This document shows, piece by piece, positions 8,562 to 40,829 of a DNA stretch of 64,000 nt. Location: assembly GCA_035235625.1 (NCBI GenBank), contig CP141149.1:36821753-36885752 (forward strand). The letters run 5' to 3'. Position 1 is the stretch's first letter. Every line of letters begins with the position of its first letter. Made by a program: the position numbers and the translations under genes. This stretch comes from Saururus chinensis (lineage: Eukaryota; Streptophyta; Magnoliopsida; Piperales; Saururaceae). Under the pieces are notes generated by a model, which saw only the letters and a program-made list of their open reading frames with translations, made no database searches and was not told the origin of the DNA.

Positions 8562-8570
8562 CCTTTTATA
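8562..8570 (-). promoter_or_regulatory. TATA box of LTR C
   Basis: The minus strand reads TATAAAAGGG. The same TATAAAAGG context occurs in LTR B1 (10033-10041) and B2 (35158-35166), so it is likely the conserved LTR promoter of related elements. Confidence 0.6.
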
Positions 8571-10032: not shown

Positions 10033-10041
10033 CCTTTTATA
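10033..10041 (-). promoter_or_regulatory. TATA box of LTR B1
   Basis: The minus strand reads TATAAAAGG, matching the position of TATAAAAGG in the other copy, B2. Transcription would run toward lower coordinates into the CCG-rich leader at 9500-9960. Confidence 0.6.
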
Positions 10042-10399
10042 GGCATGGGATCAGGGCTCCTAATCCCATGAGAAATTAGGCCTCAAAAACCCAATTTCGG
10101 AACAGTAATTGATCGGGCCCGTAACGTAGCTTAAACGGATAGTTCGCGCGTTCAATTTGGGTAAATGGGTCCTGCATATTAAAGTAAACTTCAAACAATC
10201 GTATCTCCCTCATCCGAACTCCGATTCGTGCGTTCTTAGTGACATTTCGAAGCTCTTTCTGTCTACTTTCCATCCATATATAATTTAGCTACCACTTCCA
10301 ACTGATGATTAAGTTAGTCCCACGCGAAGATCAAGGGGTCCTACACCTTAATTTCCACGTGTACGACTTCAGGAATTTAGAAAATTCCAGAACGTTACA

Positions 10400-18300: not shown

Positions 18301-21106
18301 GATCCTTAGACCAAACTAGAAGGGGCAGGGCAACCGCACTCTCAGAGCACTGCATCCCACCAAACCTCTGTTGGCATATATGACACCCACACATCAGATG
18401 TGGCTAAGTCGGGATATAATCCCTGTGGGTGGCCCATGGAGTTTAGGACTCCTACTTCCTTCATTTTCTATTTTCTCACTTTTTTTTGAACCAGGAAATC
18501 CAAAGTCCAGAAAAAGGGAAGGCCAAAAAAGTTGGCACTCCACCTTTGAGCCCACTATAAGACCCCTGAAGTATTGAGAGGCTTCTTGCCAAGAAAGCAT
18601 CTTTGGAGTTCCACACACAATTCCAGAGCTTTAGAGGGTCATTACAAGAAAAATTTTAAGCTGTTTTCTTCTATAGAGAAATTTTGTTAAAAGAAATTTG
18701 TTGGCTGCAATTAAAAGAAGCCTTTTCTTGTTTTGAAAGGAGGATCTAAATGTTTGTCATCTTCTCTCAGGAGTTTCCTAGAGTCAGACAAACTCTTAAA
18801 TATAGCTGTAAACACCACAGGTTCATTCTTTGTTTACCTTTCCTTCAATTTAACAAGAACCAATTCCTATTTTCTGTCTTTCAAACTCAATGTACATTCC
18901 TTATTTAAGGAAAAGAAGTCTGTTGCTCAGACCCTGTCCTTAATACATATTTCATCTTGTAACTTGTTTTCTGTAAACAAACCTCCAAGAACTTGCTTTT
19001 TTATAGTACCTTCTGATTCTCCGGAATAACAATTTCCAGAACATATAGTTTCGAATTGATTATTAAAGCTTCACCACCTACCTATAGTTTCCCACTACTC
19101 ACAAGGCTACTTAAAGGTGTTGGAAATGATGTCACTTTTGCCTTCACCCAGTGTCTTCAAAAATACTACTTTGAGTAAGAGCAATTATACATCACATTCA
19201 ACTCCTATTTCACAGGGAAGCCGATGGCTCCTGATGTACAAATCCTAAAGAAGAAAGCTCAAAACGGATGAAAACAAAATAACATTAAAATGTAGAAGTC
19301 ATTAGGACCTCATTCAACTTATGCTAGATATTTACCTGTGCTCTTTTTCCCTCACTTCTTTTGTTTTGGTTTTGATCCTTTTAACTTGGGACTTACCAAT
19401 CGTTTACAGAGGCAAGTAATCTAAGAATACTCTCAGAATAGTAAGGAAATCACGAAGTTCATTACACAAAACTTCCAGTACAACTCATTAGTCAAGCATT
19501 AGTCAACGCTACTCTATCTGAAAAAAGATCATTTGTATAAAGCAAGAGACTGTGACAAAGAGAAGCAAACCTCAGTTATTAGAATCTTTGATCTTAGTGC
19601 ATCTGCATTCCGGGGGTCCAGTATAAAATCTGAAGTTGTATCTCCTGTAAAGGCTACTTCAGGGGACAAGATAGTGTCTGTAATCTGATCACCATAACAT
19701 GGGTGTCAACAAAAAATCTGATTCAATAACACATAAAACGATATCATAAATGTAAGTACTACCATGAGGTGACAAAATTTACACACCTCTGCACCAGATA
19801 ACTTCAGTTTCTTTATCTGCGGTCCTTTTAAATGAACGTACTGTTTCTTAAGCTTGTTCCTCACGGAGTAAATGACATACCCCTGAGTTGAAAAGAGGAC
19901 CAGTGCTCATGGAAACGATCAGATTGGCAAAGAAATTAGTCCGACATAATCTACCTGGCTGGGTATAACATGGTGTGTCTTGAACGGTCTGACGACAAGA
20001 TCATTACGAATTTCATAAGTCTCACCTGAGGTTCAAGATCGAGAAGTTCAAGTTACTTGCGCTTGGCTAAACTAACAGAGAAAAAGGCAAACGAGGAAAA
20101 AAGCAGAAGGATAAATGAGAAACATACCCACATCCAATGCAACTAAATTTACTTTGAGCTCGGTATTACTAAGAGCTCTATGTATGTCCAACAGCTTCTC
20201 GACATCATCCTTAATGCAAGGAGGTAAGAACACCGTCGGGGATTTTAAGCTGTAGAGGCCACGCGTTGCTACATACATCGGCAGCCCCCCCTGCACATGA
20301 CAGAAGAAATAAAAAAATTGAAGACATTTGTGGTTCAAGGACGGACGGACTGAAAGTTGGCAGCTTTTCGGTGAATTTTGCCTCCACATGCAAGTGGGCG
20401 GAACTCATTTTCCATCACGTAAACGAAAGGAAATTTCATTAAACAATATTCAAAGAAGAAGTTCAAAAGAAAAGCAAGTCGAGAGTGCGGGGAGGGAGTA
20501 AAAAAAAATGCAGGGAAGGAAGTAGAAGCGAGAAATTGAGAAGAAGAAAAGATAGCTGAGGAGAGAAGTGCTCAAGAGTTGAGAGATGAAGCAACACTTG
20601 TGGGATGGGGGTGGGGGGGAGCGTACAATGTGGTCAAGGTGGGCATGGGTGATGAAGAGAAAGTCCTGATGGACGGCCCGGGCCGGGCAGCGGCCGATAT
20701 CAAAGGCGGCGTTGAGGCTGGGAACGATGACGCACGTCTCGTGGCCGCCTACGGAGATGCCCTCAATCAAATAGCCCTCGACGTCGACCCCTCTCCGGTT
20801 GACCTCTGCCCTTGCCTTTCGATACTCCTCCTGCTCGATGGCGTGGCTCAGAGCCGACAAGAATCCCGAGCGCTGAGCAGAGACAAGAGAGGACCGTCGT
20901 CTAAGATGCGAGGAAGAGAAGCTGTTGGCGGGGTGGTGTAGATGGCTGTAGGTTGTTGCCGTCACAGCGGTGGTTGTGGTGGAGCTGAGAGACGGGGCTC
21001 CTCCTCCGTGCGCAGGGTTAGGGACCGGTGGGGACTGCGGAAGAAAGGATGGGAAAGGGTAGTTGGGCCAAGCGCCCATGAGAGATATCATCATGCTGCA
21101 TGTCAT
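15353..21106 (-). CDS. TRZ2: tRNase Z, short form, TRZ2-like (chloroplast)
   Basis: Zinc-dependent endonuclease that removes the 3' trailer of precursor tRNA. The plant TRZ2 branch works in chloroplasts. Eight exons, all with GT/AG junctions and continuous frame: 20627-21106, 20128-20290, 19955-20025, 19787-19882, 19571-19684, 15979-16047, 15525-15599 and 15353-15442, giving 385 residues. Arabidopsis TRZ2 is somewhat shorter, about 354 residues as I recall. The first ~80 residues are Ser/Pro/Thr-rich, fitting a transit peptide. Visible metallo-beta-lactamase motifs are HAHLDH (154-159), THHVIPSQ with the motif III His (231-238), the Asp in FTGDTTS (285), the HGHMH region (324-328) and LTH (His348). 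The frame closes with TAA. Methionines 5, 6 and 10 are alternative starts; the first was chosen as the longest. No break is seen, so it is probably functional. Confidence 0.93.
16048..19570 (-). other. Intron 5 of TRZ2 (3.5 kb)
   Basis: Separates the exon ending ILITE (19571) from the exon starting ATYLDE (16047). It contains a duplicated segment: about 16510-16600 and 16725-16800 share AAGTTGC-TCAAAAGCTC and ACCAACAATGTAT-like blocks. There is also a C-run at about 17740-17751. I recognise no element ends or genes in it. Confidence 0.75.
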
Positions 21107-22840
21107 CTATTCTTTTTCTTTCTTCGGTGAGTTTGGAAGAAGACGCAGGAGGGGGGGTATTAAGAAAAAAAAAAAATGAAAAAATAGGGGATGATGATAA
21201 GCGCAAGCCAAACGGAAGAGACAGATTGCAGAGGGAGTGGGAGAAATTTTGGACTTTTTACCTGGGTGATTGCCGTCTCGGCGAGATCTCGCCGAGATCT
21301 CGCTCTCGGGATAAGATTGGGTAAAACCGCTTAGGGTCGGCTGTGGTGCACTCTTACCGGAATGGGTGAGAGTGCCCCCACGTCACTTACGGGGTCAGTA
21401 TAGTTAAGCAGGACTTTCCTCTGACCCAAAACGTGATCATAGTTTACCTCCGGGCAGAGCTCCACTATCCTAATCGCCCATAACCCTCTCGTCTGGAGAA
21501 TTTTCTCTGCTCTAGCCGCCGGAAGTAGAGGCTTGCTCTTGTCAGAGACCACCGGGACCCAGCAGTGGAAGGTGGTCTTGTCGTCGATAGGGATTTAGAT
21601 CGATTTCAGCCTAGCTGAGTAGAAGTTGCAGTGAGGTTGTGGCGAAAATAAAACTAAGATGGCCGATTCACGAATGTCTCTCCTCGGTTCCTTTTTGTCT
21701 TCTTCCGATGCCGGAGAGGGTTGAGATGAAAAGATAAGACAGAATCCTCAAGGAAACTGCTCTCTTCCGTCGTCCAGAGAGATCTTCAACCCAGATCGGG
21801 TTCCATTTCTTCCGCAACCCTCATATTTCCTCCGGAGCTCCACTGCCCTAATCACCCTCAACAAGCTGTGAGAGACGAATAGGAGGTTCCTCTACCGCCA
21901 CCTAAAGGAATCCCCTTTTACAACGCCCTAATCGCCGAAGCTTGCCTGCGAGGTGCTTCACAGTGAATCCAAAGTGTAGGATGCTGATTTCTGGGTATTC
22001 CATACTCAGATGCTTCTGTATTGAATCACTTTACCTCCCTGCATTGTTTATTTGTTGATTTACTAATTTTGAGTTAGTAGAACAAGTTGTTTCATTGTAA
22101 GAAGAAAGAGGAATGGGTTTATGATTATTATCTTATGACGGTGAGAGGGAGTCAAGTAGTAGTAAATAAAAATCTTTTGCTTACCATGAGAAATTTGTGA
22201 TTTGGAACAAAAAAATGTTGTTTGGTTGAAGAAGTATTGGTTGAGGCTCAAGTTGGCCATTTGCAAAAGTTTACAGCTCACCTTTACAGCTCACCTTCTT
22301 TGAAAGTACTATACTTTCACACTTATTGTACTTTATTTTCTATCAATTATTTGCTTTTACTTTATCTTTATCTTTTATAGTTTATTTTTTTACTAGCTGC
22401 TATGTGATTGGCTGATTACATTATCTTTTTAACGATGTTGGTTGTTTAATACATAGCTATATCATTTTAAGATGCTCAATTCACAGTACTGGGGAGCAAT
22501 ATGAAATGCCCATTACCTAGTTTACTTTGGACCCATTTTCAATCAACAACACGTGATTCTAGGTGAATAAATTATATCAGCAGTTCAAGTTCATATCCAA
22601 TTAAAGAATGATTTCGGAAGCACTAAAACATTAGCTTTTTTTTACTGCAAATCTACATTCTACATATTTACTTGCATTCATTTTGATGCTAAATTTTCTT
22701 TGGATAATACGTTCATAGGTTAGTGAATAGGTGACTAATTTTAAAAAGATTCAAGTGGATAGGTATCTTTTACTGTAATTAGATAACTATTTTTTACTGC
22801 TAATTGATAGAGTTTCGTCTAATAAATGCCAGGGTCTTAC
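21107..22840. other. TRZ2 upstream region
   Basis: The likely promoter side of TRZ2. It holds poly-A/poly-G runs at 21150-21180 and a strong self-complementary block at 21280-21310 (GGCGAGATCTCGCC). Two related CCTCCGG-GAGCTCCACT-CCTAATC segments lie near 21450 and 21831. From about 22000 onward it is AT-rich with no recognisable gene. Confidence 0.5.
21280..21310. repeat. GATCTCG palindrome cluster
   Basis: Overlapping self-complementary blocks, GGCGAGATCTCGCC followed by GAGATCTCG. They lie about 175 bases upstream of the TRZ2 start codon, so they may be a repeat remnant or part of the promoter. Function unknown. Confidence 0.6.
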
Positions 22841-22884
22841 ATTTTCTAAGCTTTGATGAATACGAAGAGCACCACCTGCCATAG

Positions 22885-23610
22885 TTGCAAAAGGGCATTG
22901 TAATAAAGCACAATGCAAACCATCGTTATGCAACAAGTGGAATAACAGCTTTTCTTTTCAAAGAATTAGCCAAAATGTATAACCTTCCAACTCAGGTATT
23001 GATACTTGTTAGGAACACCAGCTCCCATATGATTACTTATGTGGAAGCATCAGTCACTATCAGAAGGGTATTTTGAGAATTTTGCAAGCAGAAGGGTATC
23101 TTAAAGAGAGCCAGAGGCATGACAAGGCTGGTTACAATCCTACCAAGTTGTTTGCTCGTTTGAAGAATAGTATTCGGCTAATTGACATGTAAAGTGGAAT
23201 TATTAAAAAGGTTTTCCAAAAGATAATCTAAGAGACCGTATATCTTTGTATAATATTTCTTTGTATTGTATCCTATCCTGAATGGCATTTGTTTGATATA
23301 AATTTGCAATCCACATGGGCAGCATTATGTTGTTTGGGCAGAAGATGCTGCTAGATTTATGGAATACAAGAGTGAGATAAATGATCTAGGTGTAATAGTT
23401 GTTGGTTCTAACCAGATTTATCTTACTTTTCCTGCAGAAAGCACCACATTTAGTGTACAATGTAAGAAACATGGGCAACCTTTGGGGTCGTTGCAGTCAC
23501 CTATCACCTATGAAATCTGCACCATCTTATCTCTCTCCTCCATCGCAAAGGAAATCATTCCAGACAATTTGCAGGCTCCCATCTATAATGGTTGCAGGAC
23601 TTATTTGTTA
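22885..23610 (+). pseudogene. CCCH zinc-finger/RRM protein gene fragments
   Basis: Two exon-like pieces resemble the C-terminal half of plant CCCH zinc-finger proteins with an RRM (C3H18/22/53-like; family assigned from memory). Piece one (about 23062-23190) reads ILQAEGYLKE, then KAGYNPTKLFARLKNSIRLI. Piece two (23323 to about 23477, after a ...GGGCAG acceptor) reads DAARFMEYKSE, then GSNQIYLTFPAES. In the family that last stretch leads into the RRM, but here the frame is lost soon after FPAES. The upstream frame (22885-23076) runs out of register with piece one. No CCCH fingers are present. The end of piece two forms the left tip of the palindrome at 23441. Confidence 0.6.
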
Positions 23611-26600
23611 ATTTTGGAAATTCACAACCTGCACAGTATAACGATCTTGCTAATTCGTATGTATCTCAAGGTCATCATTAGCCAATGGCAATGGCTTAGA
23701 GCCACTGCATACTCCATATTCATTTTGTGCCTTCTAATGAATTCTCACACTATATTACTGTAGAAGCTAGCATTCATTTTTAAGCAGTGGGTCATATTTA
23801 GTTTCCCAATAGTATATTGGTTTAATCACAGGTCTGCATACACAGAGTATCCTTAACAGAACCCTTTGGATAGCATATATGAAGCAGATTAAATGCTGAG
23901 GAACATGAAATATACCAGCCATTTTACTGCACTGAATTTCACAATTAAAATTGTAAAAATCTACAAGAAGTATTGGGTCTAAGTGCAGGTTTTGGGAGTG
24001 TCATTGACAGTACCTTTGAGATAAAAAATTTGCAAGAAAATTAAATGCTGAGGAACAACCATTTTATTGCACTAAATTTAACAATTAGAATTGTTAAAAT
24101 ATGCCAGATCCAAGTATCGTTGACTATTATTGATTTTCCAAAATTGCTGCAAGGTTGAATAATATTGCAGTAGAGTTAGAGCAATATTGCTCCAAGGTTG
24201 TAGCCATATTGCTATATAATTTTAGTAATATTACTCCAATCATGTAGAAATAATATTGCAAACATTAGAGCAATATTGCTGCAAGGTTGTAGCAGTATTG
24301 CTCTTTACCTTATAGCAATAATGCTCCAACAGTGTAGTAATAATATTGCACTATTAAAGCAATATTGCTCTAATATTTTAGCAATAATGTTGCACCATTA
24401 GAGTAATATTGCTTCAACGTTGCAGCAATATTGCTCCAACCTCATAATAGTATTGCTGCAAGCTTGATGCAAAATTGCTAGAAGGTTGGAGCCATATTGT
24501 TACATAGTTGTAACAATATTGCTACATAGTTGTAGTCATATTGTTATATAAGTTTAGCAATATTGCTCCAATCATGTATAAATAATATTGCAACATTGGA
24601 GCAATATTGCTGCAAGGTTGTAGCAATATTGCTCCTGCCTTTTAGCAATAATGCTCCAACAGTGTAGTAATAATGTTGCATCATTAGAGCAATATTGCTC
24701 CAACATTGTAGCAATAATGCTGAGCAATAATGTTGCACCATTGGAGCAATATTGCTCTAACATTACAGCAATATTGCTTCAACCTTATAACAATATTGCT
24801 GTAAGTTTAATGCAAATTTGCTACAGGGTTCGAGCCATATTGTTACATAGTTGTAACAATATTGCTACATAGTTGTAGCCATATTGCTATATAATTTTAG
24901 CAATATTGCTCCAATCATGTAGAAATAATATTGCAACATTGGAGCAATATTGCTGCAAGGTTGTAGCAATATTGCTCCTACATTGTAGTAATATTGCTAC
25001 AAGGTTGTAGTAATATGGTTCTAACAGTGTAGTAATAATGTTGCACCGTTAGAGCAATATTGCTCTAACGTTATAGTAATATTGCTCCGACCTTATAATA
25101 ATATTGTTGCAACTTTGATCCAAAATTGTTGTAGGGTTGGATCCATATTGTTACATAGTTGTAACAATATTGCTACATAGTTGTGGCCATATTGCTATAT
25201 AATTTTAGTAATATTGCTCCAATCATGTAGAAATGATATTGCAATATTGCTCCTACCTTGTAGCAATATTGCTCCAAGGTTGTACCAATAATGCTCTAAC
25301 AATGTAATAATAATGTTGCACTATTAGAGCAATATTGCTCCAACATTGTAACAATAATGCTACACCATTGAAGCAAATATTGTTCCAACCTTATAACAAT
25401 ATTGCTGCAAGTTTGATGCAAAATTGTTATAGGGTTGGAGCCATATTGTTACATAGTTGTAACAATATTGATACATAGTTGTAGCAATATTGCTCTAACC
25501 TTGTAGCAATAATGTTGCAAGGTTATAGCAATATTGTTGCAGGGTTAGAGCAATATTACTAAAAGGTTGCAGCCATATCCATACAATGTTGGAGCAATAA
25601 TACATTAATGTTGGAGCAATATTGCTCCAACATTGTAGCAATATTGCTGCAATGTTGGAGCAATATTCCTCCAATATTCCTACCACGTTGCAGTAATATT
25701 ACTACATCCTTATAGCAATATTGTTACTATGTTGTGCCAATATTATCACATCATTGGAGCAATATTGTTACTACATTGCAGCAATATTGCTACATCCTTA
25801 GAGCAATATTTTTATTACGTTAGAACAATATTGCTACATCCTTACAACAATATTACTACAACCTACCACGTTATAACAATATTGCTACCACCTTTTAGCA
25901 ATATAGCAATATTCTTTTGTAGCAATATTGCTACATCCTTAAAGTAATATTGCTACCTCCTTACATCAATATTGCTACCACATTACAACAATATTGTTCC
26001 TCTCCTGCAGCAATTTTGCATCAACTTGCAGCAATATTGCTCTAACATTCAACAATATTGCTACAAGGTTGCAGCAATATTGTTCTAATATTGCTGCATT
26101 GATAAAGCATTATTGCTACAACCTTACAGTAATATTGTTACAACGTTTTTGCTACAAGGTTGGAGTTTAATATGAATATGGCTACAACCTTGTAGCAATA
26201 TTGCTCCAACCTTATAGCAATATTGCTCCAACTTTACAGCAATATTCTTCCTACTTCACAGCAATTTTGCATTAACTTATAACAATATTACTATAAAATT
26301 GCAGCAATATTACTATACTATTAGAAGATTATTATTATAACCTCGCAGCAATATTATTTTAACGTTGCAGCTTTTTTGAGAAAACAATAATAATCAAAGT
26401 TACTTACATCTAACATATTTTATAATTTTAATTATTGATTTCAGTGGAATAAAATGACAGATATAATTGATGTTCCTCAGCATTTAATCCGCTTACAAAT
26501 TTTTTATCTGAAGGGTACTGCCAATGACACTCCCAAAACCTGCAATTAGACCCAATACTTCTAACATATATTTTTAATTTTAATTATGGAATTCAGCTTA

Positions 26601-26872
26601 ATAAAATGGCTAGTATAATTTATGTTCCTCAGCATTTAATCTACTTACATATATGCTATCCAAAGGCATCTGTCAATGATATTCTCTCTGCGTATGCAAA
26701 CCTGCGATTAAACCAATATACTAGGGAAACCAAATATGACACACTGCTTAAAAATGAATGCTAGCTTCTCCAACAATATAGTGTGAGAATTCATCCGAAG
26801 GCACAAAAAGAAGAAAGTTGTAAGGAATGATAACATAGTAATATTTCTTACATTGGACACTAAATGTGGTGC
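23441..26872. mobile_element. Foldback-like 3.4-kb imperfect palindrome
   Basis: The left arm from GCACCACATTTAGTGT (23441) is matched in reverse complement by the right arm ending ACACTAAATGTGGTGC (26872). Further paired blocks are GAATTCTCACACTATA (about 23741) with its complement near 26790, AAATGCTGAGGAAC (23890, 24042) with GTTCCTCAGCATTTAAT (26470, 26625), and GGTTTTGGGAGTGTCATTG (23990) with its complement near 26525. The pairing continues to the array edges, where ACTATTATTGATTTTCC pairs with its counterpart near 26390. Each arm contains an internal ~165-bp direct duplication. The left arm has about 240 extra bases after 23477. The midpoint is near 25156. No transposase is encoded, and no clear target duplication was found. 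Confidence 0.8.
24140..26370. repeat. AGCAATATTGCT palindromic satellite-like array
   Basis: About 2.2 kb of degenerate 22-25 bp units, each centred on the perfect 12-base palindrome AGCAATATTGCT or a close variant, joined by linkers such as CCAAGGTTGT. A higher-order repeat is visible: the landmark CCAATCATGT recurs at 24235, 24568, 24911 and 25219, spaced about 333, 343 and 308 bases. Both strands look alike because the core is self-complementary. Open frames across it encode only repeats of the unit and are not genes. Confidence 0.92.
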
Positions 26873-26954
26873 TTGAATATTAAGCCTCTATACTAGTTTT
26901 GTTTACAATTCCTAAAATACCCCTCTTCTTATCATCCTTATGCCCACACTTTTA

Positions 26955-28299: not shown

Positions 28300-28640
28300 T
28301 ATAAATAGCAATCAATTTATACTATACTTACATTCACACAACAATAAATATATACTCTATTATTCACATCCACCACAGAACATAACAGTAAATATATACT
28401 CTGTTCACATATATGGAAGAATAAAATTATACTTTAATTTCATATATAAAAAAATAAATTTATATTCTATTCGCATATATGGAATAATAAATTTATACTC
28501 TGACCTTATATATAGAACAGTAAATTTATACTCTGTAAACATATATGGAATAATAAATTTATACTCTGTACACATATATGAAATAAAAAATTTATACTCT
28601 AACCACATATATGGAAAAAAAATTATACTTTATTAATAAA
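28300..28640. repeat. AT-rich motif block (AAATTTATACTCTG family)
   Basis: About ten variants of ACAGTAAATTTATACTCTGT separated by CATATATGGAA linkers, roughly 30-40 bases apart. Similar blocks occur at about 31445-31690, 32780-32960, 33740-33890, 34690-34768, 38077-38240, 39480-39690 and 40830-41480. They sit between and inside the MULE genes, including introns of the ULP1-like gene. Confidence 0.85.
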
Positions 28641-28963
28641 ATTGTTTAGATTAATATTTCTAAGTTTAGCAAAACCTACACTTACATTATACTTGAAATT
28701 GTTGGGAAAATGTACAATTTTATTATAATTATAATTATGATTATGATGCAGAATTCATAAGTTTCATACTTTGTTTATTACATAGTATAATTTTACTATT
28801 CTCATCAATTGGAATCATTATTTATTGTGTATCATTGAATTGATTTTTTCCCTTGTTACCAATTTTTGTGATTTATTATGAATCAAATTTGTATAGTTGT
28901 TCTCCATGTTATTATAAATGTCTTTTTCATTATAATGATTAATGTTTCATTATATGTAGGTTA

Positions 28964-31300
28964 ATGGATTCATTTCTTCTTTTAATGTGCAAATACATTA
29001 CTAATACTACTGTTATTCGGGTTGATATCAAGAACACACACAAGGGCTTGATTTCTATGATTTGTGAACGATGGAGTAACTTGAATGCTAAGAATGTGAG
29101 GTTGTCTTACTCTTTATCGGGTCATACATGTTGTAATCTTCACAATGATGTTGACATGGAAAATTTATTCTTACTTGCTTCCAATCTTAGAGTTAAGACT
29201 ATTGATGTTTCTGTTACGGATATTTCAATTTCTAGCGATGTGTCCATTGGTTGCCAGCCCAGTTTTAGTAATCATTTGTCAAGTAGCAATATCCAGAGTA
29301 TTGATGGCAGTGTGTTTGATGAGGTGACTAACTTTGATCTTCCTTCCTCCTCACATGAAGATTCAATGCTTATGACTAAAAATTGGTCCAATGAAATAAG
29401 TCATGTTGGGCAAAAGTTTGTTGGAGGAGTCCAAGAGTTCAGGCATAAATTGTGTCACTATGCTATTCAAGTTGGCTTTTAGTTTAAGTATGTAAAAAAT
29501 GATGCAAATAGAGTGACTGCAGAATGTAAATTCAAGGAATCCACTGGAAGTGAATCGCAAGTTCATGAAAGGAAAGATAACTGGAATAATTTTTTATATA
29601 TTCTTAATCTAAATACTATTCATACATGTGGTTTTGTTGTGCAAACAAAGAAGAACTCGAGGATGATAGCTAAGATTGTTTCTAATGAGTTGTTGAGCTA
29701 GGTTGTGAACAAGCCCCTTACTCGCCCAATTGATGTGGTGTGTGAATTCAACACTAATTATGGTGTTGATATTTCGTATAAAGTTGCTTGGAAGAGTGTA
29801 CAAAAGGCTCAAAATCAGGTCTATGGTGATCATTCAACATCTTACAATGATCTTCATTGGTACGCCAGGGCTATTTTAAGTACTAACCATGGTAGTCATG
29901 TAGTACTGGATATTAATGATCTAAATTTACGTTTTAGAAGGGTATTTGTGTCCTTTTTTGCATGCATTTCTGGATTTGAGTATTGTCGCCTAGTTTTATT
30001 CTTGGATGGTACTCATTTGAACGGTCATTATAAAGGACATTTGTTGGCTGCTACTGGTAAAAATGGTAACCAAGGTAAAAAAAATCTCTTATTCTAGAGA
30101 GTTTGTTTATATATTTTTCATTTTATATGTTATTTTTTATTAGTATATTTTTCAATATACTTTGCTTTAATTGTTTTTTTTACTATAGAGTATAATTTTA
30201 TTCTTTTCTGAAGTAGATCATTTTTTTCATGCTCTTGATGTTATATTTTTTTGTCTATTTTATTAGGTATTTTTCCACTAGCATATGCTATTGTTGATTC
30301 TGAGAATTTAGATAATTGGAGATGGTTTCTCGAAGAATTGAAGAAAATATTAAATCCTTCTCGTCAGCTAACTATTGTTTCAGATTGAAACAAGGGACCT
30401 GTTGAAGGAATGACACAAGTGTTCCCTTATTTTCCACATGCCTACTGCTTATATCACCTAAGAACAAATTTGAGGAATTGTTTGAGAGGAAGGACCAAGC
30501 ATGTTCGTAACAAAATGGATTTTATGCTAATAGAGTGTGCAAATGCAACAACACCAACATTGTTTCACAAGAAATTGGAGGAGCTAAAAATAGAGGGTGG
30601 TCAACAAGTTATTAGTTTCTTTGAAAATCTTCCTAATGAAAATTGGACAAATGCTTACTTCAAGGGTAAGCGTTATGGTGATTTGTCTTCAAATGTTGTA
30701 GAAAGCTTCAATTCATGGATCAATTATGAAAGGCACTTACCAATTATGAAGATGATTGATTCTATACGGGTCAAAATTATGAATATGATGATGGAGAGTA
30801 GTAATCAGCCAAGCAGCTGGACAAGTGTTCTTTGTCCAATAATGGAGAAAAAATTGTCTGATAATATCAATACTTGCATCACTTGGGTGGTGGTTGGTTC
30901 TACTCCAAATGTGTATGAAGTTATGTCAACCCTATCTGCATATGTGAATATTGAAACTCATGAGTGCTCCTATTTTCGTTGACAGATAAATAGGTTTCCA
31001 TACTCACATGCAAGTGCTGCACTGATGAAGAGTGGAAAAGATCCCCGTTCTTATTGTGATGAGTACTTGACAAAAGAGTTTTTTGAAAACTCTTACTCTC
31101 AACCGATCAATCCTATTCCTACCTTGGAAAAGCCAGATGAAGAAAATTTAGTATTGCCACCATTAACAAGAAGGCAACCTGGGAGGCCCAAGAAGAAGAG
31201 GATTCCTTCTCTTGGTGAGAAAATAAAAAGAAAAACTAAATGTGGTCGATGCGGTAAACTTGGTCACCACAACAAAAAATCATGTAAAGAGGCTTTGTAG
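28964..31300 (+). pseudogene. MuDR/MULE transposase, decayed
   Basis: Two exons, 28964-30074 and 30267-31300, joined across a GT/AG intron. The frame is constant throughout (715 codons) but has in-frame stops at 29480 (TAG), 29699 (TAG), 30386 (TGA) and 30980 (TGA). The N-terminal part has the MuDR-type KNDANRVTAECKF block (about 29501-29540). The MULE catalytic domain follows, with LDGTHLNGHYKG (first Asp, 30005-30007), then FPLAYAIVDSEN and TIVSD (second Asp). After that come the YHLRTNLRN and FNSWINYERHLP blocks. The SWIM zinc finger is damaged: ECSYFR-stop-QINRFPYSHA has Tyr where two Cys are expected. A basic region and a CCHC knuckle (CGRCGKLGHHNKKSC) end the protein. No frameshift was needed. 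It would have cut and pasted the element, but it cannot be translated intact now. Confidence 0.9.
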
Positions 31301-33035
31301 TCCCTCATATATAAATGTTTTTTTTATTATTTTTGTTTTAGGAATACATAATTTTCAATTTTTATATGCAAATCATAATTTCATATTCAAAAGGTATTGC
31401 TTAGTTGACATTTTAATTTCCCTTCATGTACTAAACCATTAATTTAGTGTTACAGTAAATTTATACTCTGTCAGGATCACAGTATAAATTTACTTGTATT
31501 CACTTTACGATTTTATATTGACAAGTCATGTACCACAGTAAATTTATACTCTGTTCTGATTACATATTAAAAGGTCATGCCTTACAGTAAATTCATACTG
31601 CTGTAAATTATTTTTTTATTGAAAAGTCATGTACCACAGTAAATTTATACTCTGTTAGAATCATAGTATAAATGTACTATAATTCACACGATTATAATTT
31701 TATCATGAAGTTAGGTGTTACAAAAAATTATGTAAAGGCAAAGTTTATTGTAATCCCTTAGCCAATTTTTATTTTTATGGGTATACCCTAAAACCAGCAG
31801 CCAGGATTATTTCAACAAATGATATGGTATTGGCAGCCTAACATATATAGCAAATGGTTTTTTTTTGTTGATATGGAGTCACAAGCTACTAAGGCACATG
31901 AGGATAATGCTTTGAATAGGTTTTCAAATAAAATGGTTCCTAATGGGCTGATAGCCCCCATATGTGTTAGCAAATGGTTGCTATAACAATTTCATCATGA
32001 AGTCATTTGTTACAAAATACATTTTACAACAGAAAATCAGTTTTCACATGAAGTTGGCTTCTGCACTTGAATCATTCCCCTATGTGATTCACCACAAGAA
32101 GCTTCTAGACGGTCATCTAAGTTGCTCCTGCATAGACAAATGTCACACTTAGGCACAAGACATGGCAGTCATCTCAAGGAAGAAAAATGCTTTAATTCTA
32201 TAATCAACATCACATTGCTATGACTGACATTAATCCAAACATATTTTTATTGTCCATGCACAAGCATCTAATTCCCACATACCGACTCATATGTTGCTTT
32301 CTTCCAAGAAGCCGAGAAAGGTTTAAACATATCCAGCATGACATAATTTATTCTCTTATCAATTTGCTATCAGTAGGTACTAAAGGAATTATTGAATAAG
32401 CTTCATCCAACAAAGAAAACTAGCGTATTAGCAAATTAGAAAAGGTAAAATTTGAGATGAAAGTGAGGATTAATCAAATTGTAGTTTTGAAAAGCTGAAA
32501 AGTATCCGAGGATTAAGAAAATCAAGTGCAACCAAAATATTGTTAGGGCCTGTTTCCTACATACTGAACACACAAGAACAACTGCGCTCAACATTCACCA
32601 CAATATAATAAAAACCAAAATTTTAAAATTAAGAATTTAATTTTCAAAGAGGACCTAATGGGAAATCATAGGCCTTTTGGGGTTCTGGTGAGAATTTTCT
32701 CTAAATTCTTTTAGTTATCAAGACATTTACATGCATAGTTTATATTAAACTTAGTCAAAAGAAAAGGTAAATATATCATCATAACAATCAATTTATACTC
32801 TATTGAAGGGAGAGATCATGTATAAATCACAATCAATTTATACCATAATTACAGAACAATAAATATATACTATGTTATTTGCATCCACCACAGAACAAAA
32901 CAGTAAATATATACTCTGTTGTTTACATCCACCACAGAACAGAACAAGAAATATAGTGCTCCAACATTGTTATGTGTTCATCAAATTCAAATGAGTGCAC
33001 CAGTTTATCCTCCATAAGCCTCCTTATGTAAATTC
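31301..33035. other. Space between MULE genes
   Basis: AT-rich. It carries the TTTATACTCTG motif at 31445-31690 and 32780-32960, and otherwise shows no recognisable gene. The open frame at 31964-32152 is unrecognised. Confidence 0.5.
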
Positions 33036-33330
33036 CTACTCTTTCAAACCCATAATTCTAGTGTTCTCCCTGACTCGCTTGAATGTAAGATACAAGGGGC
33101 TATAAAACAGGCAGCACAAACCAAATGGAACTACTATCATGGATAATAGTCCTCTTGAGAGGGCCAAAGCTTCAGGCACTGAACTATACATCAATTTCAC
33201 AGCCTTTGAATCATAGCCATAGATCATAGTCCGGTGCTTTGCTGGGACCACCTCTGCAAACATGGGATTATTTGCACAAGTACCACTAACTAATAGTGAG
33301 GCACATAAGGAAGAGCATTGTGGCAAAAAT
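33036..33330 (-). pseudogene. MFS (spinster-like) transporter fragment
   Basis: The minus strand reads CANNPMFAEVVPAKHRTMIY, then GYDSKAVKLMYSSVPEAL and SRGLLSMIVVPFGLCCLFY, ending in NTRIMGLKE and a stop. This resembles the C-terminal part of plant major-facilitator transporters related to spinster-type proteins (assigned from memory of the family). The segment that normally lies between TMIY and GYDSKAV is missing, as if an exon was lost. The upstream continuation (FATMLFLMCLTIS, to about 33480) is in another frame. It sits inside the presumed MULE, next to the ULP1-like gene, so capture of a host fragment is likely. It is not functional. Confidence 0.65.
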
Positions 33331-34074
33331 TGACCAGCTATTTACTGATCTAGGGATCATAGATAAGATAAAAGCGAAGTTGTGAACAGTCAAATTTTTA
33401 TCTTGCCCCATGTGATTTGTTATATAAACTATGGTCTCTGAATTAGGGCTAGCATTGCATTCAACCAACCGTTCCATTTTCTTCTCAATAGAAATTTATA
33501 TTTGGTTGGAGTGAGGGTGGATAATCCATCATTAGGTGGTCATGTGTTCCATATTCTTGAATCATGACCGGCCATTCAGTCACCCTACTTGTGTTGTGGT
33601 GTGAGTTGCCAATCAAACTGGGAAAATGGCCCATAATTATGAAGTGGGGCCAGCCCAAATTCATTGATTGATGCACGACCAAACTGCATTTTCCTGTTCC
33701 TGTAATGCTTTGTAAGCTCGCAAATGGAAAAGCTCACATATATACTTTAATGACCAAACAGTAAATATATACTCTGCTCACATATATACTTTAATTTCAT
33801 ATATAGAAAAACAAATTTATACTCTAACCTCATATATGGAACAACAAAATTATACTTAAATTTCACATATAAACAAACATAGATGTTCATAAAAAATAGA
33901 TGTCACTGCACTTACCTTTTCTTTTTCCTGTAAGGTCTTCTCTTCCTATTGATCATCATTCAAGAACATATGGATCATTTGGGCTCTAAAATTTTCAATT
34001 GATCCATCTTCTAAATTTTTCTTTACTTCATGTCCTTTGACTATTTCATATATATAGTAGCACATGAATATGCC

Positions 34075-34077
34075 ACT
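34075..34077 (-). other. Cys-to-Ser at ULP1 active site
   Basis: The minus-strand codon is AGT (Ser) in the motif DDSGIF, where the C48 family has a nucleophilic Cys. A single base change from TGT would give it. Confidence 0.75.
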
Positions 34078-34768
34078 ATCATCTCTGCAAATAGTAAGTT
34101 AATATTAGACCCATATAATTTCTTTGCTGTTAACATGTGTTTCTTCAAATTTTTTTTCAAAACTTGCAAATTTTTTGACTGTTTTGCAATATTTTTTACT
34201 TCAATGAACTCTCCCATCAAGTCTTGCGTTGAAATGTCTAATTTAACTCTTCTTTTCATCTTCTCTTTTGAATATTCAACCAATTCATTTTTCTCTAAAA
34301 AAAATCACATGTTAGAGAATGAAAGTATAATTTTACTTAATACACACAATACATAATTATTATTGTAAGTAAACTAGAATTTATTCTTGCAATAGAAGGA
34401 AATTTACCAACTTCATGGCATCTTTCTCATATTGGTCAAGTGAAAGTCTTTTTGATTTACGTGAATTGTAGTGCATCCATTCTCCTGTCTCATCATCACT
34501 TAACATAAAGTGCCAATGATATAATCCATGTCCAGTATCCTTTAGATTTGATGCAGTAGGAAAATTTTGATATCTTATTTTCCCACATTTATCTAAATAT
34601 GGGTAAAAGATAAACCTTCTCATTTCCTCTTTCTTCCCATTTTCCAAATATATCTGTTTTAACAAGAACTCATTAGTCAATTATTCAAGCTATATCATGT
34701 ATAATAATATATAAAAAATAAATTTATATTCTTGGTCACATATATGGAAAAGTAAACTTAATACTTTA

Positions 34769-37700
34769 TGTAATATCCCTAATTTTCCCAAGTTTTGAAA
34801 TTTAAATACGTGGAAAATAGGGTGTTTGACCTTTTGACATTCTTAGTAAATAACTTCATCCTTAGATAGAAATTATGGCTGAAACTAATTCTATTACAAA
34901 GTAGATAGATAGAGCTTCTAAACGCCACCAAGAATGCATGAATCGGAGTCCAGATGAGGGAGATACGACCGTTTGAAGTTGAACATATCGTGCAGGACCC
35001 ATTTACCTGATATAGACTGTATTTGGCCCATTTAAGTCATTTTGCGGGCCCAATTGTTTATAATTCCAAAATTAATTTTTAAGGTTCTAATGAGGTGGCC
35101 TAATTGGGGAGGATTACCCAAAATTCTAGAGGGTTTAGGAACCCTAATCCCCAGGTTTATAAAAGGCCTTCTTAGGGCACAATTAGGGGGGTCTTTTGCC
35201 CGATTGGAGGAGTTTTTTTTGGGACGGAGGGAATTTTTCGGCGCGACTCTGGCGAAGCGTTGGTGATGGTGGATCGATGACAAATCGGCCTTCGAGGTAG
35301 GATTTTTAAACAATATCAAAGATATTTTATTATTAAAATATAAATCTTTTTTTGTAATGTCATGAATAGTGATATCTACAATCACTGTCTACTTCTGGAT
35401 GTTTCTGAATACCGGCCAGTCACCGGCCTACCATTAGTGGCTAGACCTATTGCGAGAGGGGCATTCCAGTCCTGGCGGTGGCAGTTTTGGATCCGGCGAC
35501 CATGACGGCGGCGGATTTGCTACTGCTGGGTCAACACAAAAAGAAAAAGAGAGAAGAGCCTTACTGCAGCGCGGCGTAGCCGCCGGCCAAAGGAAGGACC
35601 AGGGCTGCCGGAATCGCCGGAAGATGGAGATCCAGTCAAGCCCGGCCCATCGGTTGGCCGTAGTGGCCTACCATCGTGACAGAACCGCCGGATTTAAAAA
35701 AAAAAGGGACAAAAAGAAAGGGTGACCTTTGGCCGCCGGCTAGCCACCGGGCAGCGGCAGAACAGATGCCGTCAGTTCCACCATTCGCCGGCGGTCCAGG
35801 AACACCTGGGCCATCCCTCCTCGGCTGCAGTGTTGGCGGCCCCGCCAGAGGCTGTGGCCGGTTGAGGAGAAGACGACCCGCGATGCGGGTCGTCAGCCGC
35901 TGGACCGGGTTGGGTTTCCCAACCCGATCGGGTCCGGTCTGATTTGATAAAAAAACAAATTTAACATCCTAGAAAATTACTATTGAACCTTGAGAGGCGT
36001 GGGAGTTTTCTGACTAAGTTTCATATCAGCTAAAAATCTCAGAGGTTGAAATGACCTTTTTACCCTTGTTAGTTTATTATCGTACAATATTAACTTACCC
36101 GAGTTCAAGGCTTTGATTCAGGGTCATATGAGTGGATCTAAAAATTGGGAAAATTCTCAGTGAGATTTTAATGGGTAACCAAACTATAGGCTATGCCTTT
36201 TTGGGAGGAAAAATCCCAGTGAGTAGAAATTAATCTTTTTGTCCCTAGGTTTAATCGGAAATTGTTAAATAAACCTGGGTCGGTTCAAGGGGTTCACGAC
36301 CCTGTCACATGCCAGGAAAATTACACAGAGTCCATGAAGTCAAGTAGTGCGCTTGAGTTCAATTTTGGACCCATTGGATGTCAATAAAGCCTTAAACCAA
36401 ATGACAGAACTACCCCTATGCAAACTAGCCCGCATTCACGTGGATGTTGTTAACGGGCCAATGTAATACTGAAACCTTTTGGGAGGTTAAAGACTTACCC
36501 GAGTGCAGAGAGGACTGTATCCAATGTTGGATAATTACTTTAATAACCTTAGGTGCATTACGACCAGTTTAATAAAGATTTATTAAGATAACCCAAGGAG
36601 GGTTAGGGCATGAGAGCTCAAATAATTCTTATATCATTAATGAATTTTATTATTGACATTATGATCTGCTTGGACCTGTGTAGTTCTGATGGTTTATGTT
36701 GTTCTTTGTTTCGATTTTTGATATTGATGTAGTGATAGTAATTTATCACTATCTTAAGATTATTGAAAGATTAATTAATGGGGTTTGATAGCTTTGGATT
36801 GGGCGAGAACACCTAATCAAGATAAAGACTAAAATACCTCAGAGGGGTTTGGGACTAGTTCATACAGTGAACAAAGCCTTTGACCTGATGATTTGCCTTG
36901 GTTGATGAACCGATGGCATGTTTCGAGTTGTAAACCTTAGTCTAGAAGGGACTAATAGGATTTGGGACAGTCATTTGGAATCCTGGCTTATAGATGAGCA
37001 AGATAGGGTTCATAATGGTTTCCTGAGTTTTAGCTCTGTTGAGGAGCTGCTGATTTGACCGTGTAGTTGCACCTCCCCATTGGAGGGAGTTCTTTGTGAG
37101 TCGGGCTCACCGCAGATCTATTGAGGATCTTTTAGTGTACACGCAATTAGGGTCGCTGACATCCTGCTTGGTTGGCGTCTTTGACCACTTCTGTTCAGGT
37201 ACAGTTGTAGGCTATGCCCTTCCACTCTGGTCAGGTCCTTATGGGCTAGGTTTGAAGATAGCACTTCCTGGTGGATTCGAAAGGCCTGGTGGATTCTAGG
37301 GTGTTTCATTGTCATTTGTCACTTAGGTTGATATCTGATGAGTCTGTTTGTCATTGGGATTAGACAGAGATATTAATTATCGAACAATAGTTTGAGAAAT
37401 AATTAATAACATTGATTAATATTGCTTGTTTAATTAGAACAAGTAGAACAATTAAAGGACTTGCATAAAATGTAGGTTGCTTGAAAATACTTAAGCATTG
37501 CATATGTGATGCTATGCTTCTTAGTATAGTGTAGTATTAGGCAGAAATACATCTGGATCCGATCTTGTTGAAAACATTGGAGATGTTATCTGATGAGTAC
37601 ATAAGCAACTAACATCGGGTGATGTTGGCCCGATCCAAAAAATATTAATAAAACCTTTTGTCCTTTGGAAGCTCTTTTCCTGTAGGCGGAGATGCTCCAT

Positions 37701-38076
37701 TGTGGTTGTGGTTGTTGTTTGGTTTGCTTTGTTGCAGATTCTCCAGGTGACGACAAGTGAGACCAAGGCAGGCGAGCACAAGAGGTTTTCTCATTTTTGC
37801 AACTCCGATACGTAAGTGTACCTTAAGCGTGAGAGTCAACTTGTTATTTATTTTCAGACGGGTGACAGACTTGTACTTAGATGGATGAGCTGGTCTTTAT
37901 GAATTTTCAGACGTTAAATAATATCATATGCTTTGATATTCGTATTTGTAAACCCCAGTTATCATGACCTGGATATTTAATCGAATGGTTTGTTTTGTAT
38001 TTAAAGAAAGAAAAAAATTCTCGCTACTTACCGTTTGTGCTATTTAAAAATATTTTTAAAAATCCGGGTCGTGACA
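34769..38076 (+). mobile_element. Solo LTR B2
   Basis: It is 3308 bp, starts TGTAATATCCCTAATTTTCC and ends AATCCGGGTCGTGACA, with perfect 5-bp duplications CTTTA at 34764-34768 and 38077-38081. It has no internal coding region and no second LTR. It is the second copy of LTR B, with B1 on the opposite strand at 3613-10399. The pre-insertion site, rebuilt by removing the LTR and one duplication, is the local TACTTTAATTTCAT motif. The insertion therefore hit the MULE motif block within an intron of the ULP1-like gene. It carries a TATA box, a CCG-rich leader and a GTAGGATTTTT donor-like site near 35300. Confidence 0.93.
35158..35166 (+). promoter_or_regulatory. TATA box of LTR B2
   Basis: TATAAAAGG in the context GGTTTATAAAAGGCCTTC, about 390 bases into the LTR, with the matching box in B1. 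Transcription would run into the GC-rich leader at 35220-35940. Confidence 0.6.
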
Positions 38077-38864
38077 CTTTAATTTCATTTATAGACTAAT
38101 AATTTTATACTATATAGAATAATAAATTTATACTCTAACCTTATATATGGAACAATAAATTTATGCTACTGTATATAAACATGGAATGGTAAATTTATAC
38201 TATGATTTCATACATAGAATATTAAATTTAGACTCTGATGAGGTATATTTTCAACGTACAAGCTAAAATGTTCAAAACCATGCTAAAGTAAAGTCATTTG
38301 AGAAAAGCCACAACAATAAATGACTAGACATCTCTATCCATTTTCTCAATATCTATGTTTTATTAAGATGACTGATTGGTGAATTATTTAAACTAAATAA
38401 CATGCATTAAAATTTATGACTTGCTAAATGATAAATACTTACAAAGGATAAGGAGTTGTGTAAGAAAAATGTTGCACTTTTTGACCAATTCTTCCCATCT
38501 TCTATGTCTTTCTTGATTTCTTTTAAAAGAATTTCCAAAAAGGCATCTATGACCTAATAAAAGATCAAAACAAGTTACTATGTTCATATGCATTAAACAA
38601 AATATTTGAAAACTCAAATACTTACATTAATGTTCAAAATTTTTTGATCAAGCAAAATTTTCACATCTTCCATTGTGATTTTTGCTTGTCCAGCGCTTTT
38701 GGAAACCCATATTAAAGATCTGCAACACATTCAAAGTTTGTTTATTAACAAAAGCTTATTTATTAATAATATTAATAAAATCATTCACATCATCTAATAT
38801 GAGAGTTTATTTATACCTTGTAATTAAAATTAAAAAATAAAATTTGAAATACTTACATTGGCTC

Positions 38865-38902
38865 TTGTTTTTTTTCCAATTCATTGTTTTTTTTCCAATT
38901 CA
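38865..38902 (-). repeat. 19-bp tandem duplication in ULP1-like exon 4
   Basis: Two adjacent copies of a 19-base unit (38865-38883 and 38884-38902) whose core is TTTTTTTTCCAATTCA. Since 19 is not a multiple of three, the frame is broken and a stop arises. With one copy the exon 4 to exon 5 joint is in frame, so the duplication is a secondary mutation. Confidence 0.85.
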
Positions 38903-40829
38903 TTTTCTGAAAGATAGGACCACACAATCCCACTATTTCTTTTTGTTTTCTTAGGCTCCTTATCATTAGACCCCTTTGCAAACTTCCTTTTGTAGGCCCT
39001 TACTTTCTTCTCAACCTTTTCATAAACATGCACCAAATCATTTTCATCTTGGTTCTTTGTCTTTCAAGCCCTGCATTTGATTCTTGTTATCTTTGATGGC
39101 ACCTCAGTTGCTGAATAGATTGAATGTTGGGGTGTCTCATTGGTTGTCATCTCACCCTCATATTTCGAAGTAAATTTTCCTGATTGTGCTTCATCAACCA
39201 CCAAAGGTAAAGAAGAAGGGGTTGCCTCATGGACTGCCTCCTTACCCTTAGTTTTAGAACTAGTCCATTCTAATTCTACCCTTGCTACTACCATCTCTTC
39301 AATTTGTTGAACTAGTTTCTCTTTTTCTTTTTCCTTTTCTTCCAAAGCTGTTTTAAGTTTCAAAATTTCTTCATCTTTCGCTTCAACAACTGCCTTCAAC
39401 TCATCAACTAAGTGTTGTTGATTGTTACCTACAACATATGTTCACATCAATCCATAAGTAAATTTGTATGTGTAAGTAATAGAATAACAAATTTATATGT
39501 TTGGGAAATGAAGATAATAAAAACAATACTACAGTAAATTTATACTCTGATGTAATGCTTAGGCTATCAAACAATAATAATATCATACACTAAACAGTAA
39601 ATTTATACTCTCATATTATATACATAATTATACACCTATACCTTGAGATTTTATAGTTCATAATTATATCAACAATGAAATAGTAAATTTATACTATTAC
39701 CAAAATTCTCTCCTTGCTCTTGCCCTCCAGGTTGAACCAATGGTTCAACCTCCACTTCCTCATTAGTCTCTTCTTCTCTCCCATAAAATGCAAAAAAATC
39801 TTTTTCTTCATTTGTCTTCTTCAACTGACCATCATTAACCTGTATTAAATATTACAATATTTTGTTAATTTTGTAAAAAGCAATAATTCAAATTTTTACT
39901 ATCAAGCAACAAATATTACCATTTCATCTGTCAAAGCAGTCAATTGGCCAAATGCTTTTGAGAGATTTGTCATGCTCCACTTTATCAATCTAGGGATTGA
40001 CACATTGTGGTCCCTCATTTGAATAATAGTGGAGTGTTCACATATCCAATACTACAAAGCAAGCCATATGTTAACAACTAAAAACATAAAAGTGTATTGA
40101 GCAGGAGAGAGATGTTATTCTTACCAACAGTGCCATAGTGCACCCTGTGACATGCTCTGATTTTCCATGTAAATCAATTGAATGCATGAGATTAACTTTG
40201 ATTGCCCTTGGCCATGCATATGTCCGCATATCTTGTATATTTTCAACGTATTTTGCAAACCCCCATGGAATAGATGTTTCCTTTGTAGGGAACAACAAAG
40301 TCATACATGCATAAAGGCATAAAAGTCGCACCAAGTCCTCTCTTTCATTTTGGCCATCTATTCTTATAATTTCTTCAATGGCTGTTTCTAAACATGGTTT
40401 ATCTAATGACTTGACTTCCCTAAGCCTCCTATTTACAAAATCTGTATTTCTTTTCCTCTTCTCACTAAAAGTAATAGTTACCTCACCCATTGGTATACCA
40501 AAAATAAGAGAAATGTCTTTTGAAGTTAATTCTACTAACTTCATGCCTAGCGTAAATCTATTTGCTTCATACATACCCAAGACATCCCAGATATGTTCAT
40601 CAACCTTTGCAACCTCGTTATATTTTAAATTTTTATTTAAAAATACACTAAAAATTCCCCAAAAAGGAGTCTCTCTTAAAATCTCTCTAGTCTCATCTCC
40701 AAACAACCCTTTATACTTATTGAACAGCCGCCACATTGAAGTAAGATTGGATCTGTATTGAACCATGTCTTAAATCACAAAAAATAGATAGAAAATTGTT
40801 TAGATTAATATTCCTTAAACAAAGGAGGA

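What the first reader, a model, noticed from the sequence alone, without database searches (positions are those of the whole stretch)
23441..26872. Giant palindrome whose core is a self-complementary satellite
Two ~0.7-kb inverted arms enclose a 2.2-kb array of units built on the perfect palindrome AGCAATATTGCT, with a ~330-bp higher-order period. The arms also carry an internal duplication. The transcript could fold into a very long double strand, and the DNA into many cruciforms. It matches no element class I know, though foldback elements and MITE-derived satellites are the closest ideas.
Basis: partly seen in the sequence, partly recalled or inferred. Interest (0 to 1): 0.75.

Follow-up and report, generated by a model that had tools for sequence, protein, structure and literature searches.

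The report
Jumping gene carrying palindromic satellite array
The giant palindrome is the inside of a broken plant jumping gene (a Mutator-like transposon) whose full-length relatives carry the same self-complementary repeat in front of their own genes, probably as landing sites for a transposon protein that fights silencing.

Summary
Its left end matches a terminus that other copies carry at both ends, with identical 9-bp target duplications in 7 of 7 copies read at both ends. Long relatives (12-27 kb) share the terminus and encode a MULE transposase and, convergently, a DUF1985 + Ulp1 protein. The one read in full, C8:22526912-22548216, has 1.9-kb TIRs and three 22-bp palindromic arrays: one before each gene and one between. 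The unit AGCAATATTGCT+CCAACGTTGG has dyads 11 bp apart, so the array is its own reverse complement. A related satellite sits at 8 of 20 chromosome ends sampled. The layout resembles Arabidopsis VANDAL/KIU elements, whose DUF1985 protein (VANC) binds tandem motifs to remove silencing. It is not a VANDAL: TIRs are long and the transposase is FAR1-related. Element identity about 0.95 sure; anti-silencing role about 0.45, untested. Against it: no significant constraint on the motif among recent non-autonomous copies (p = 0.065), and 2 of 20 fetched loci have arm but no array. New variant of a known kind.

The parts
21328..26910 (+). truncated non-autonomous Mutator-like element; right end missing
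   Evidence: homology to L013, L014, L016, L018, L019, L021 and others runs, with gaps, from about 21320 to 26910; left terminus; no second terminus match in the window with up to 3 mismatches; no transposase, DUF1985 or Ulp1 match inside
21328..21345 (+). left terminus CGCTTAGGGTCGGCTGTG (2 mismatches to family terminus CGCTTCGGATCGGCTGTG)
   Evidence: alignment of the window and 6 copies shows similarity starting here; (0.01 matches expected by chance)
21328..23437 (+). outer left arm; in 3 of 6 complete copies the corresponding ends are 1.9-kb terminal inverted repeats
23439..23472 (+). 34-bp block AAGCACCACATTTAGTG..., inverted copy at 26841-26874; an internal repeat, not a terminus
23473..23718 (+). 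246 bp of left arm without right-hand counterpart in the window
23719..24150 (+). inner left arm
23845..24108 (+). internal duplication of left arm (23845-23968 / 23996-24108)
24158..26371 (.). self-complementary 22-bp satellite array, 343-bp higher-order period in its first 1.4 kb
26367..26812 (-). inner right arm
26419..26684 (-). internal duplication of right arm (26419-26532 / 26571-26684)
26841..26874 (-). inverted copy of the 34-bp block
26910..26911 (.). breakpoint: family homology ends; sequence starting CCTAAAATACCC begins

Best explanation
Shown: the palindrome is the interior of a truncated non-autonomous member of a Mutator-like DNA transposon family, and the 22-bp self-complementary array is a usual part of that family. 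In the coding relative read in full, arrays lie just inside both long terminal inverted repeats, in front of the transposase gene and in front of a convergent DUF1985-Ulp1 gene, with a third array between the genes. Inferred: the array is a dense row of binding sites for the DUF1985-Ulp1 protein (a VANC/KIU-like anti-silencing factor), probably as a dimer since every 11 bp presents a CAANNTTG dyad. Binding would strip silencing marks from family members that carry the array, including non-autonomous copies, so that these are opened and mobilised in trans. The array grows and shrinks by unequal exchange, which gives the higher-order repeats and the fast turnover.
For: Element: 9-bp target duplications identical in 6 of 6 copies with both ends plus C8; terminus 59 + / 60 - exact copies in the genome against 0/0 for the control; 32 convergent terminus pairs under 30 kb among 99 listed copies on C1-C9. 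Coding partners: MULE domain 98 bits and SWIM over cut-off; DUF1985 exon 1.1e-7 and PMD 3e-7, both just under cut-off, while relatives 74-76% identical are over the DUF1985 cut-off; Ulp1 Peptidase_C48 6.3e-5, over cut-off. At least 8 of 32 pairs hold both transposase and DUF1985 matches, at opposite ends, 3.0-4.4 kb inside save one DUF1985 at 10.6 kb. DUF1985 exon dN/dS median 0.43, max 0.93, over 168 of 190 pairs of 20 stop-free copies. Arrays: of 35 array places entered from the capped list (C1-C9), 29 lie within 3 kb inside an exact terminus. The window element and all 6 complete non-autonomous copies hold an array but no transposase, DUF1985 or Ulp1 match. Arrays differ by 1-23% between elements whose DUF1985 exons are 96-99.8% identical in DNA. 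An open frame over tandem repeats lies between the DUF1985 and Ulp1 frames. Precedent: VANC has DUF1985, binds short motifs in tandem repeats in non-coding TE DNA, and its variable regions hold tandem peptide motifs (passages of PMC5735166).
Against: No binding, methylation, expression or small-RNA data. The family differs from VANDALs: long TIRs, FAR1-related transposase. Among 5 recent non-autonomous copies the core is not significantly more constrained than the spacer: 32 of 438 core columns vary against 41 of 367 spacer columns, Fisher p = 0.065, and variation follows C/G columns. Two of 20 fetched arm-bearing loci (L022, L024) have no array; neither shows a terminus in the stretch fetched, so they may be fragments. 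The complete copies were picked by arm homology, not at random, and the array list is the best-scoring part (40 of 696 candidates scored). DUF287, the second VANC domain, was not found in the frames tested. A related repeat at chromosome ends could mean that the arrays are mobile satellite, not binding sites.
Confidence: 0.5

Rival explanations
1. The arrays are sub-terminal transposase binding sites (as TNPA sites in CACTA elements, recalled), needed for synapsis and excision, not for anti-silencing.
For: In coding elements with exact termini the arrays start 1.3-3.2 kb inside both ends; the unit is a dyad suited to a dimer; the 6 complete non-autonomous copies keep it.
Against: A third array lies mid-element in C8. 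With 1.9-kb TIRs the arrays are far from the termini. In MuDR the transposase binds the TIR itself (recalled).
Confidence: 0.2
2. The arrays have no role: they are satellite DNA picked up from, or spilled into, chromosome ends, and the MULE is only a vehicle that spreads it.
For: A 22-bp satellite with nearly the same 12-bp core (AGCAATATCGCT) and another spacer lies at 8 of 20 sampled chromosome ends; recent copies show no significant constraint on the core; 2 of 20 arm-bearing loci lack the array.
Against: Arrays sit at regular places in the coding elements. Element units are fully self-complementary, chromosome-end units only 16 of 22. The core has the higher mean conservation in all 8 array sets examined, though A/T-rich columns partly explain that.
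Confidence: 0.2
3. One reading: a foldback-like element whose transcript makes a long hairpin and siRNA; the palindrome is a silencing source.
For: Very stable predicted fold, z = -20.8; inverted arms. [quoted passage not shown]
Against: Arms are not termini; the element is a MULE. Most of the 20 fetched loci have no full arm pair around the array. No small-RNA data.
Confidence: 0.08

Closest known systems
VANDAL / KIU Mutator-like elements with VANC anti-silencing protein (Arabidopsis; Hosaka 2017, passages of PMC5735166; review passages of PMC13317346)
   Same: MULE with a DUF1985 protein (in KIU with Ulp1 domain), tandem arrays of a short motif in non-coding parts, fast turnover of arrays, tandem repeats in the variable part of the protein
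   Different: long near-perfect TIRs (1.9 kb, 98%) instead of absent or degenerate TIRs; FAR1-related transposase; palindromic motif; host not named; DNA binding and hypomethylation not shown
Jittery / FAR1-related MULEs (group 36 in the table of PMC6446971, passages)
   Same: transposase with MULE and SWIM domains and a weak FAR1 match; closest relatives named FAR1-RELATED SEQUENCE 5-like
   Different: the table lists a single ORF for the dicot and monocot members of that group; here there is a second convergent DUF1985-Ulp1 gene and large arrays; no tree was built
MULEs with multiple TIRs (Ferguson and Jiang 2012, abstract and section 3.1 of PMC3310237)
   Same: MULEs with extra inverted blocks inside the ends
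   Different: in that paper inner and outer TIRs are alike over at least 100 bp; no such likeness between the inner arms and the terminus was seen here
Tetris foldback transposon of Drosophila virilis (search listing only, PMC4079207)
   Same: transposon linked to an emerging satellite
   Different: foldback, animal; not compared by sequence

Membership tests
Mutator-like element (MULE) | 9-bp target site duplication | tested here: met
   6 of 6 copies with both ends, 0 mismatches, and C8 GTTGACGCG; the window copy itself cannot show it (right end lost)
Mutator-like element (MULE) | shared terminal inverted repeats | tested here: met
   terminus at both ends in 7 of 7; ~1.9-kb TIRs at 95-99% in 3 of 6 non-autonomous copies and 98% in C8; in the other 3 no pair that long was listed, and the first 60 bp agree at 47-56 of 60
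Mutator-like element (MULE) | MULE/MURA transposase in autonomous partner | tested here: met
   PF10551 98.3 bits (cut-off 27.6) in C8; PF10551 matches inside at least 9 of 32 pairs
VANDAL | absent or degenerate TIRs | tested here: not met
   (PMC6446971 notes that some Brassicaceae members of the clade do have TIRs)
VANDAL | transposase of the VANDAL clade | tested here: inconclusive
   best relatives are FAR1-RELATED SEQUENCE 5-like; no tree was built
VANC/KIU protein | DUF1985 domain | tested here: met
   1.1e-7, 32.4 bits against cut-off 35.1; relatives 74-76% identical are over cut-off
VANC/KIU protein | DUF287 domain | tested here: inconclusive
   not among Pfam hits of the frames tested; gene structure not established
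VANC/KIU protein | Ulp1 (Peptidase_C48) domain of the KIU type | tested here: met
   23.3 bits against cut-off 20.7; a second frame 17.2, under cut-off
VANC/KIU protein | sequence-specific binding of tandem motif and loss of methylation | not testable with these tools
   needs bench work
VANC target | tandem arrays of a short motif in non-coding regions of the element | tested here: met
   three arrays in C8; arrays inside termini at 29 of 35 entered places
Foldback element | inverted repeats with internal tandem repeats reach the element ends | tested here: not met
   array and inner arms are internal; flanks conserved
MITE | short (under about 800 bp, recalled) element | tested here: not met
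   complete copies 4.6-9.2 kb

The most novel reading that the evidence does not exclude
A transposon-encoded DUF1985-Ulp1 anti-silencing protein of long-TIR, FAR1-type MULEs reads a fully self-complementary satellite, and relatives of that satellite have colonised the chromosome ends, so that a transposon protein could bind and change the chromatin of subtelomeres. This would be a VANC-like system that arose or moved outside the non-TIR VANDAL lineage, with palindromic instead of asymmetric targets.
Probability: 0.2. Interest if true: 0.85.

Novelty: new variant of a known kind. Interest (0 to 1): 0.6.

Why it matters
If right, anti-silencing by a transposon's own DUF1985-Ulp1 protein is not tied to TIR-less elements. 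That tests the published suggestion that VANDALs lost their TIRs to escape RNA-directed methylation (passage): here long TIRs, a self-complementary array and the putative anti-silencing gene coexist in elements with near-identical TIRs and coding exons. It also offers a concrete link between a transposon's regulatory array and a chromosome-end satellite, and so a case for how satellites are born and kept.

Tried and rejected
Rejected: that 23439/26874 are the element's ends (flanks conserved in copies). Rejected: foldback or MITE class (see membership table). Considered without support: that CpG decay of a palindrome AGCGATATCGCT made the motif; neither it nor AGTGATATCACT occurs in the 11 array sets counted. 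Led nowhere: Rfam 0 matches at gathering score; tRNA 0; the DUF1985 exon found no homologue at E <= 0.001 in the protein collection, perhaps because length limits exclude full proteins; naming the species failed. The top-listed protein relatives are magnoliid (Tasmannia, Magnolia), a hint only. Core-versus-spacer constraint test not significant. Arrays of the 75%-identical sister DUF1985 family could not be read. The right-arm genome search was not repeated after the left arm answered. Not in print as far as searched: the listings showed no palindromic array shared by MULE genes and chromosome ends; Sasaki 2022 (EMBO J) is not held and is known here only from a review passage.
Full report
WHAT IS THERE. 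The window lies on C10 (36,821,753-36,885,752) of an unnamed 516-Mb, 11-contig genome; a gene beside the element matches plant proteins. The arms are unequal, 712 and 508 bp. The inner 426 aligned bases are 88% identical, and a 34-bp outer block is 94% identical.

IT IS PART OF SOMETHING LARGER. A genome search with the left arm gave 92 matches at about 30 dispersed places (40 of 61 candidates scored). I fetched 20 of these places. The supposed outer end AAGCACCAC... is flanked by conserved sequence in the copies, so it is internal. Homology to the window begins at about 21328 and stops at 26910. The six copies aligned at the left end begin with GCTTCGGATCGGCTG; the window shows the same start with two changes and no partner on the right. 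No match to the fetched copies follows 26910 as a continuation, so the window copy is truncated.

IT IS A MUTATOR-LIKE ELEMENT. Six copies with both ends have lengths of 9151, 9032, 7310, 7318, 4625 and 8632 bp. All six are flanked by identical 9-bp duplications: TTCTTTTAG, TTACCATAG, GTGCCAATC, CACCCAAAC, GAGAAAGTA, CACTGAAGC. Three have terminal inverted repeats of about 1.93 kb at 99, 97 and 95% identity; for the other three no pair that long was listed. The terminus occurs 59 times forward and 60 reverse, against none for the backwards control. Among 99 listed copies on C1-C9, 32 form convergent pairs under 30 kb apart. None of the six complete copies, nor the window element, has a match to the family's transposase, DUF1985 or Ulp1 frames, so they are non-autonomous.

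CODING RELATIVES. PF10551 MULE transposase matches fall 3.0-4.1 kb inside one end of long pairs, and DUF1985 matches inside the other end; at least 8 of 32 pairs hold both. These are lower bounds: each search scored 150 candidates (of 2831 and 1524) and I entered rows by eye. I read one long element in three pieces: C8:22526912-22548216, 21.3 kb, target duplication GTTGACGCG on both sides, TIR 1876 bp at 98%. It has a transposase frame of 673 aa with MULE and SWIM domains over cut-off and FAR1 under it; its top-listed relative is a FAR1-RELATED SEQUENCE 5-like protein of Magnolia sinica, 54% identical over 79%. Facing it are frames of a second gene: DUF1985 (1.1e-7; PMD 3e-7), an acidic frame over tandem repeats, and Ulp1 protease (6.3e-5 over cut-off, and 0.0046 under). 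The splicing of these frames is not established. The DUF1985 exon has 25 places, its own included, of at least 91% identity over all or nearly all of its 205 residues; some hold stops. Twenty stop-free copies (15 close, 5 of a sister group) give a median dN/dS of 0.43, maximum 0.93, which indicates purifying selection during spread; choosing stop-free copies favours this somewhat.

THE ARRAY IS A USUAL PART OF THE FAMILY. In C8, AGCAATATTGCT arrays lie just inside both TIRs. One (C8:22528784-22529603) ends about 90 bp before the first in-frame ATG of the transposase's N-terminal frame; the other (C8:22545032-22545998) lies upstream of the DUF1985 frame. A third, with core AGCGATATTGCT, lies between the genes (C8:22535835-22536568). 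Of these 29 lie within 3 kb inside an exact terminus; the other six lie 3.2-20.5 kb from one, as the far end of elements with only one exact terminus would. Of the 20 fetched arm-bearing loci 18 have an array; L022 and L024 do not, and show no terminus in the stretch fetched. The unit consensus in the coding element is AGCAATATTGCT followed by CCAACGTTGG. Both halves are palindromes, so a CAANNTTG dyad returns every 11 bp, about one helical turn, and the array is exactly its own reverse complement. Random A/T-rich 22-mers reached 20 or more of 22 in 0.1% of 5000 trials. In seven elements compared, arrays are 77-99% identical to the C8 array while DUF1985 exons are 96-99.8% identical in DNA; the array figures may compare non-matching repeat units.

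CHROMOSOME ENDS. C1 begins with a 22-bp satellite, AGCAATATCGCTCCATTAGTGT; cores are listed up to 24 kb, of which I read the first 3.4 kb and a piece at 22 kb. Seven of 19 further end segments of 700 bp also carry cores, 4 to 23 each (C4, C5 and C11 starts; C1, C2, C3 and C6 ends); one segment is all N, and two ends were not sampled. The 12-bp core differs by one base from that of the element's main arrays and matches its middle array. The spacer differs, and the unit is only 16 of 22 self-complementary. The direction of transfer is not known.

HOW IT MOST LIKELY WORKS. In Arabidopsis VANDAL elements the DUF1985 protein VANC binds short motifs that form tandem repeats in introns, intergenic and terminal non-coding DNA, and removes methylation from the whole element (passages of PMC5735166). 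KIU-type VANC genes carry a Ulp1 domain (review passage). The family described here has the same parts in like places. The simplest reading is that the arrays are the targets of its DUF1985-Ulp1 protein, and that non-autonomous copies such as the one in the window keep the array so as to be opened in trans. This step is inference.

RESULTS AGAINST. The family has long TIRs and a FAR1-related transposase, so it is not a VANDAL by its TIRs and probably not by its transposase. Among five recent non-autonomous copies the core varies in 32 of 438 columns and the spacer in 41 of 367 (Fisher p = 0.065). Variation is concentrated in C and G columns, so mutation bias explains much of the apparent conservation of the core. 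Two of 20 fetched loci lack the array. The copies were chosen by arm homology. Nothing here measures binding, methylation or RNA.

THE WINDOW'S OWN SECOND CASE. Another element lies at about 28.4-41.5 kb: transposase fragments on the + strand (PF10551 0.053, under cut-off), a DUF1985 exon on the - strand (0.002, under cut-off; 26% identical to the C8 exon, 2.9e-10) and a weak Ulp1 frame (0.012, under cut-off). It carries its own tandem motif, AAATTTATACTCTG, 10 exact copies all on the + strand, in front of both genes and between them. Related arrays occur at dozens of places; whether those places hold DUF1985 genes was not tested. It suggests that DUF1985 MULEs with private tandem motifs are common in this genome, but its parts are degenerate.

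VERDICT. A real and well-bounded family of Mutator-like elements explains the palindrome. The array is most likely the regulatory target of the family's own VANC/KIU-like protein.

Noticed in passing
window 28389-41474: Second, degenerate VANDAL/KIU-like element: transposase fragments 28943-30982 (+), weak Ulp1 frame 33949-34098 (-), coiled-coil-like frame 39067-39441 (-), DUF1985 exon 40074-40769 (-), with its own non-palindromic tandem motif AAATTTATACTCTG in front of both genes and between them.
   Followed up: partly
window 20450-21106 and 21328: The element's left end lies about 220 bp upstream of an open frame matching tRNase Z TRZ2 N-termini, a typical place for a MULE insertion (recalled).
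   Followed up: no
L035:6198-6479 (-): The C8 element holds a frame matching E3 UFM1-protein ligase 1 (PF09743, 1.1e-15) between its two genes, which looks like host gene capture.
   Followed up: no
L002:1979-2006: A short run of plant telomere repeat (TTTAGGG) inside the chromosome-end satellite of C1.
   Followed up: no
window 3613-10360 and 34808-38076: Several inverted matches between these stretches, the longest 706 bp at 89%; possibly two copies of one repeat in opposite orientation.
   Followed up: no
window 1190-3320 and 57708-59888: Direct repeats at 69-76% with GTAAG-type minisatellites, also matched at C4:30.42 Mb.
   Followed up: no
L027 and L028: Two copies with arms in the opposite sense: arrays both between and outside an inverted arm pair.
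   Followed up: no
L031: A coding copy (C11:0.78 Mb) with transposase about 80% and DUF1985 78% identical to the C8 element, the transposase broken over several frames.
   Followed up: no
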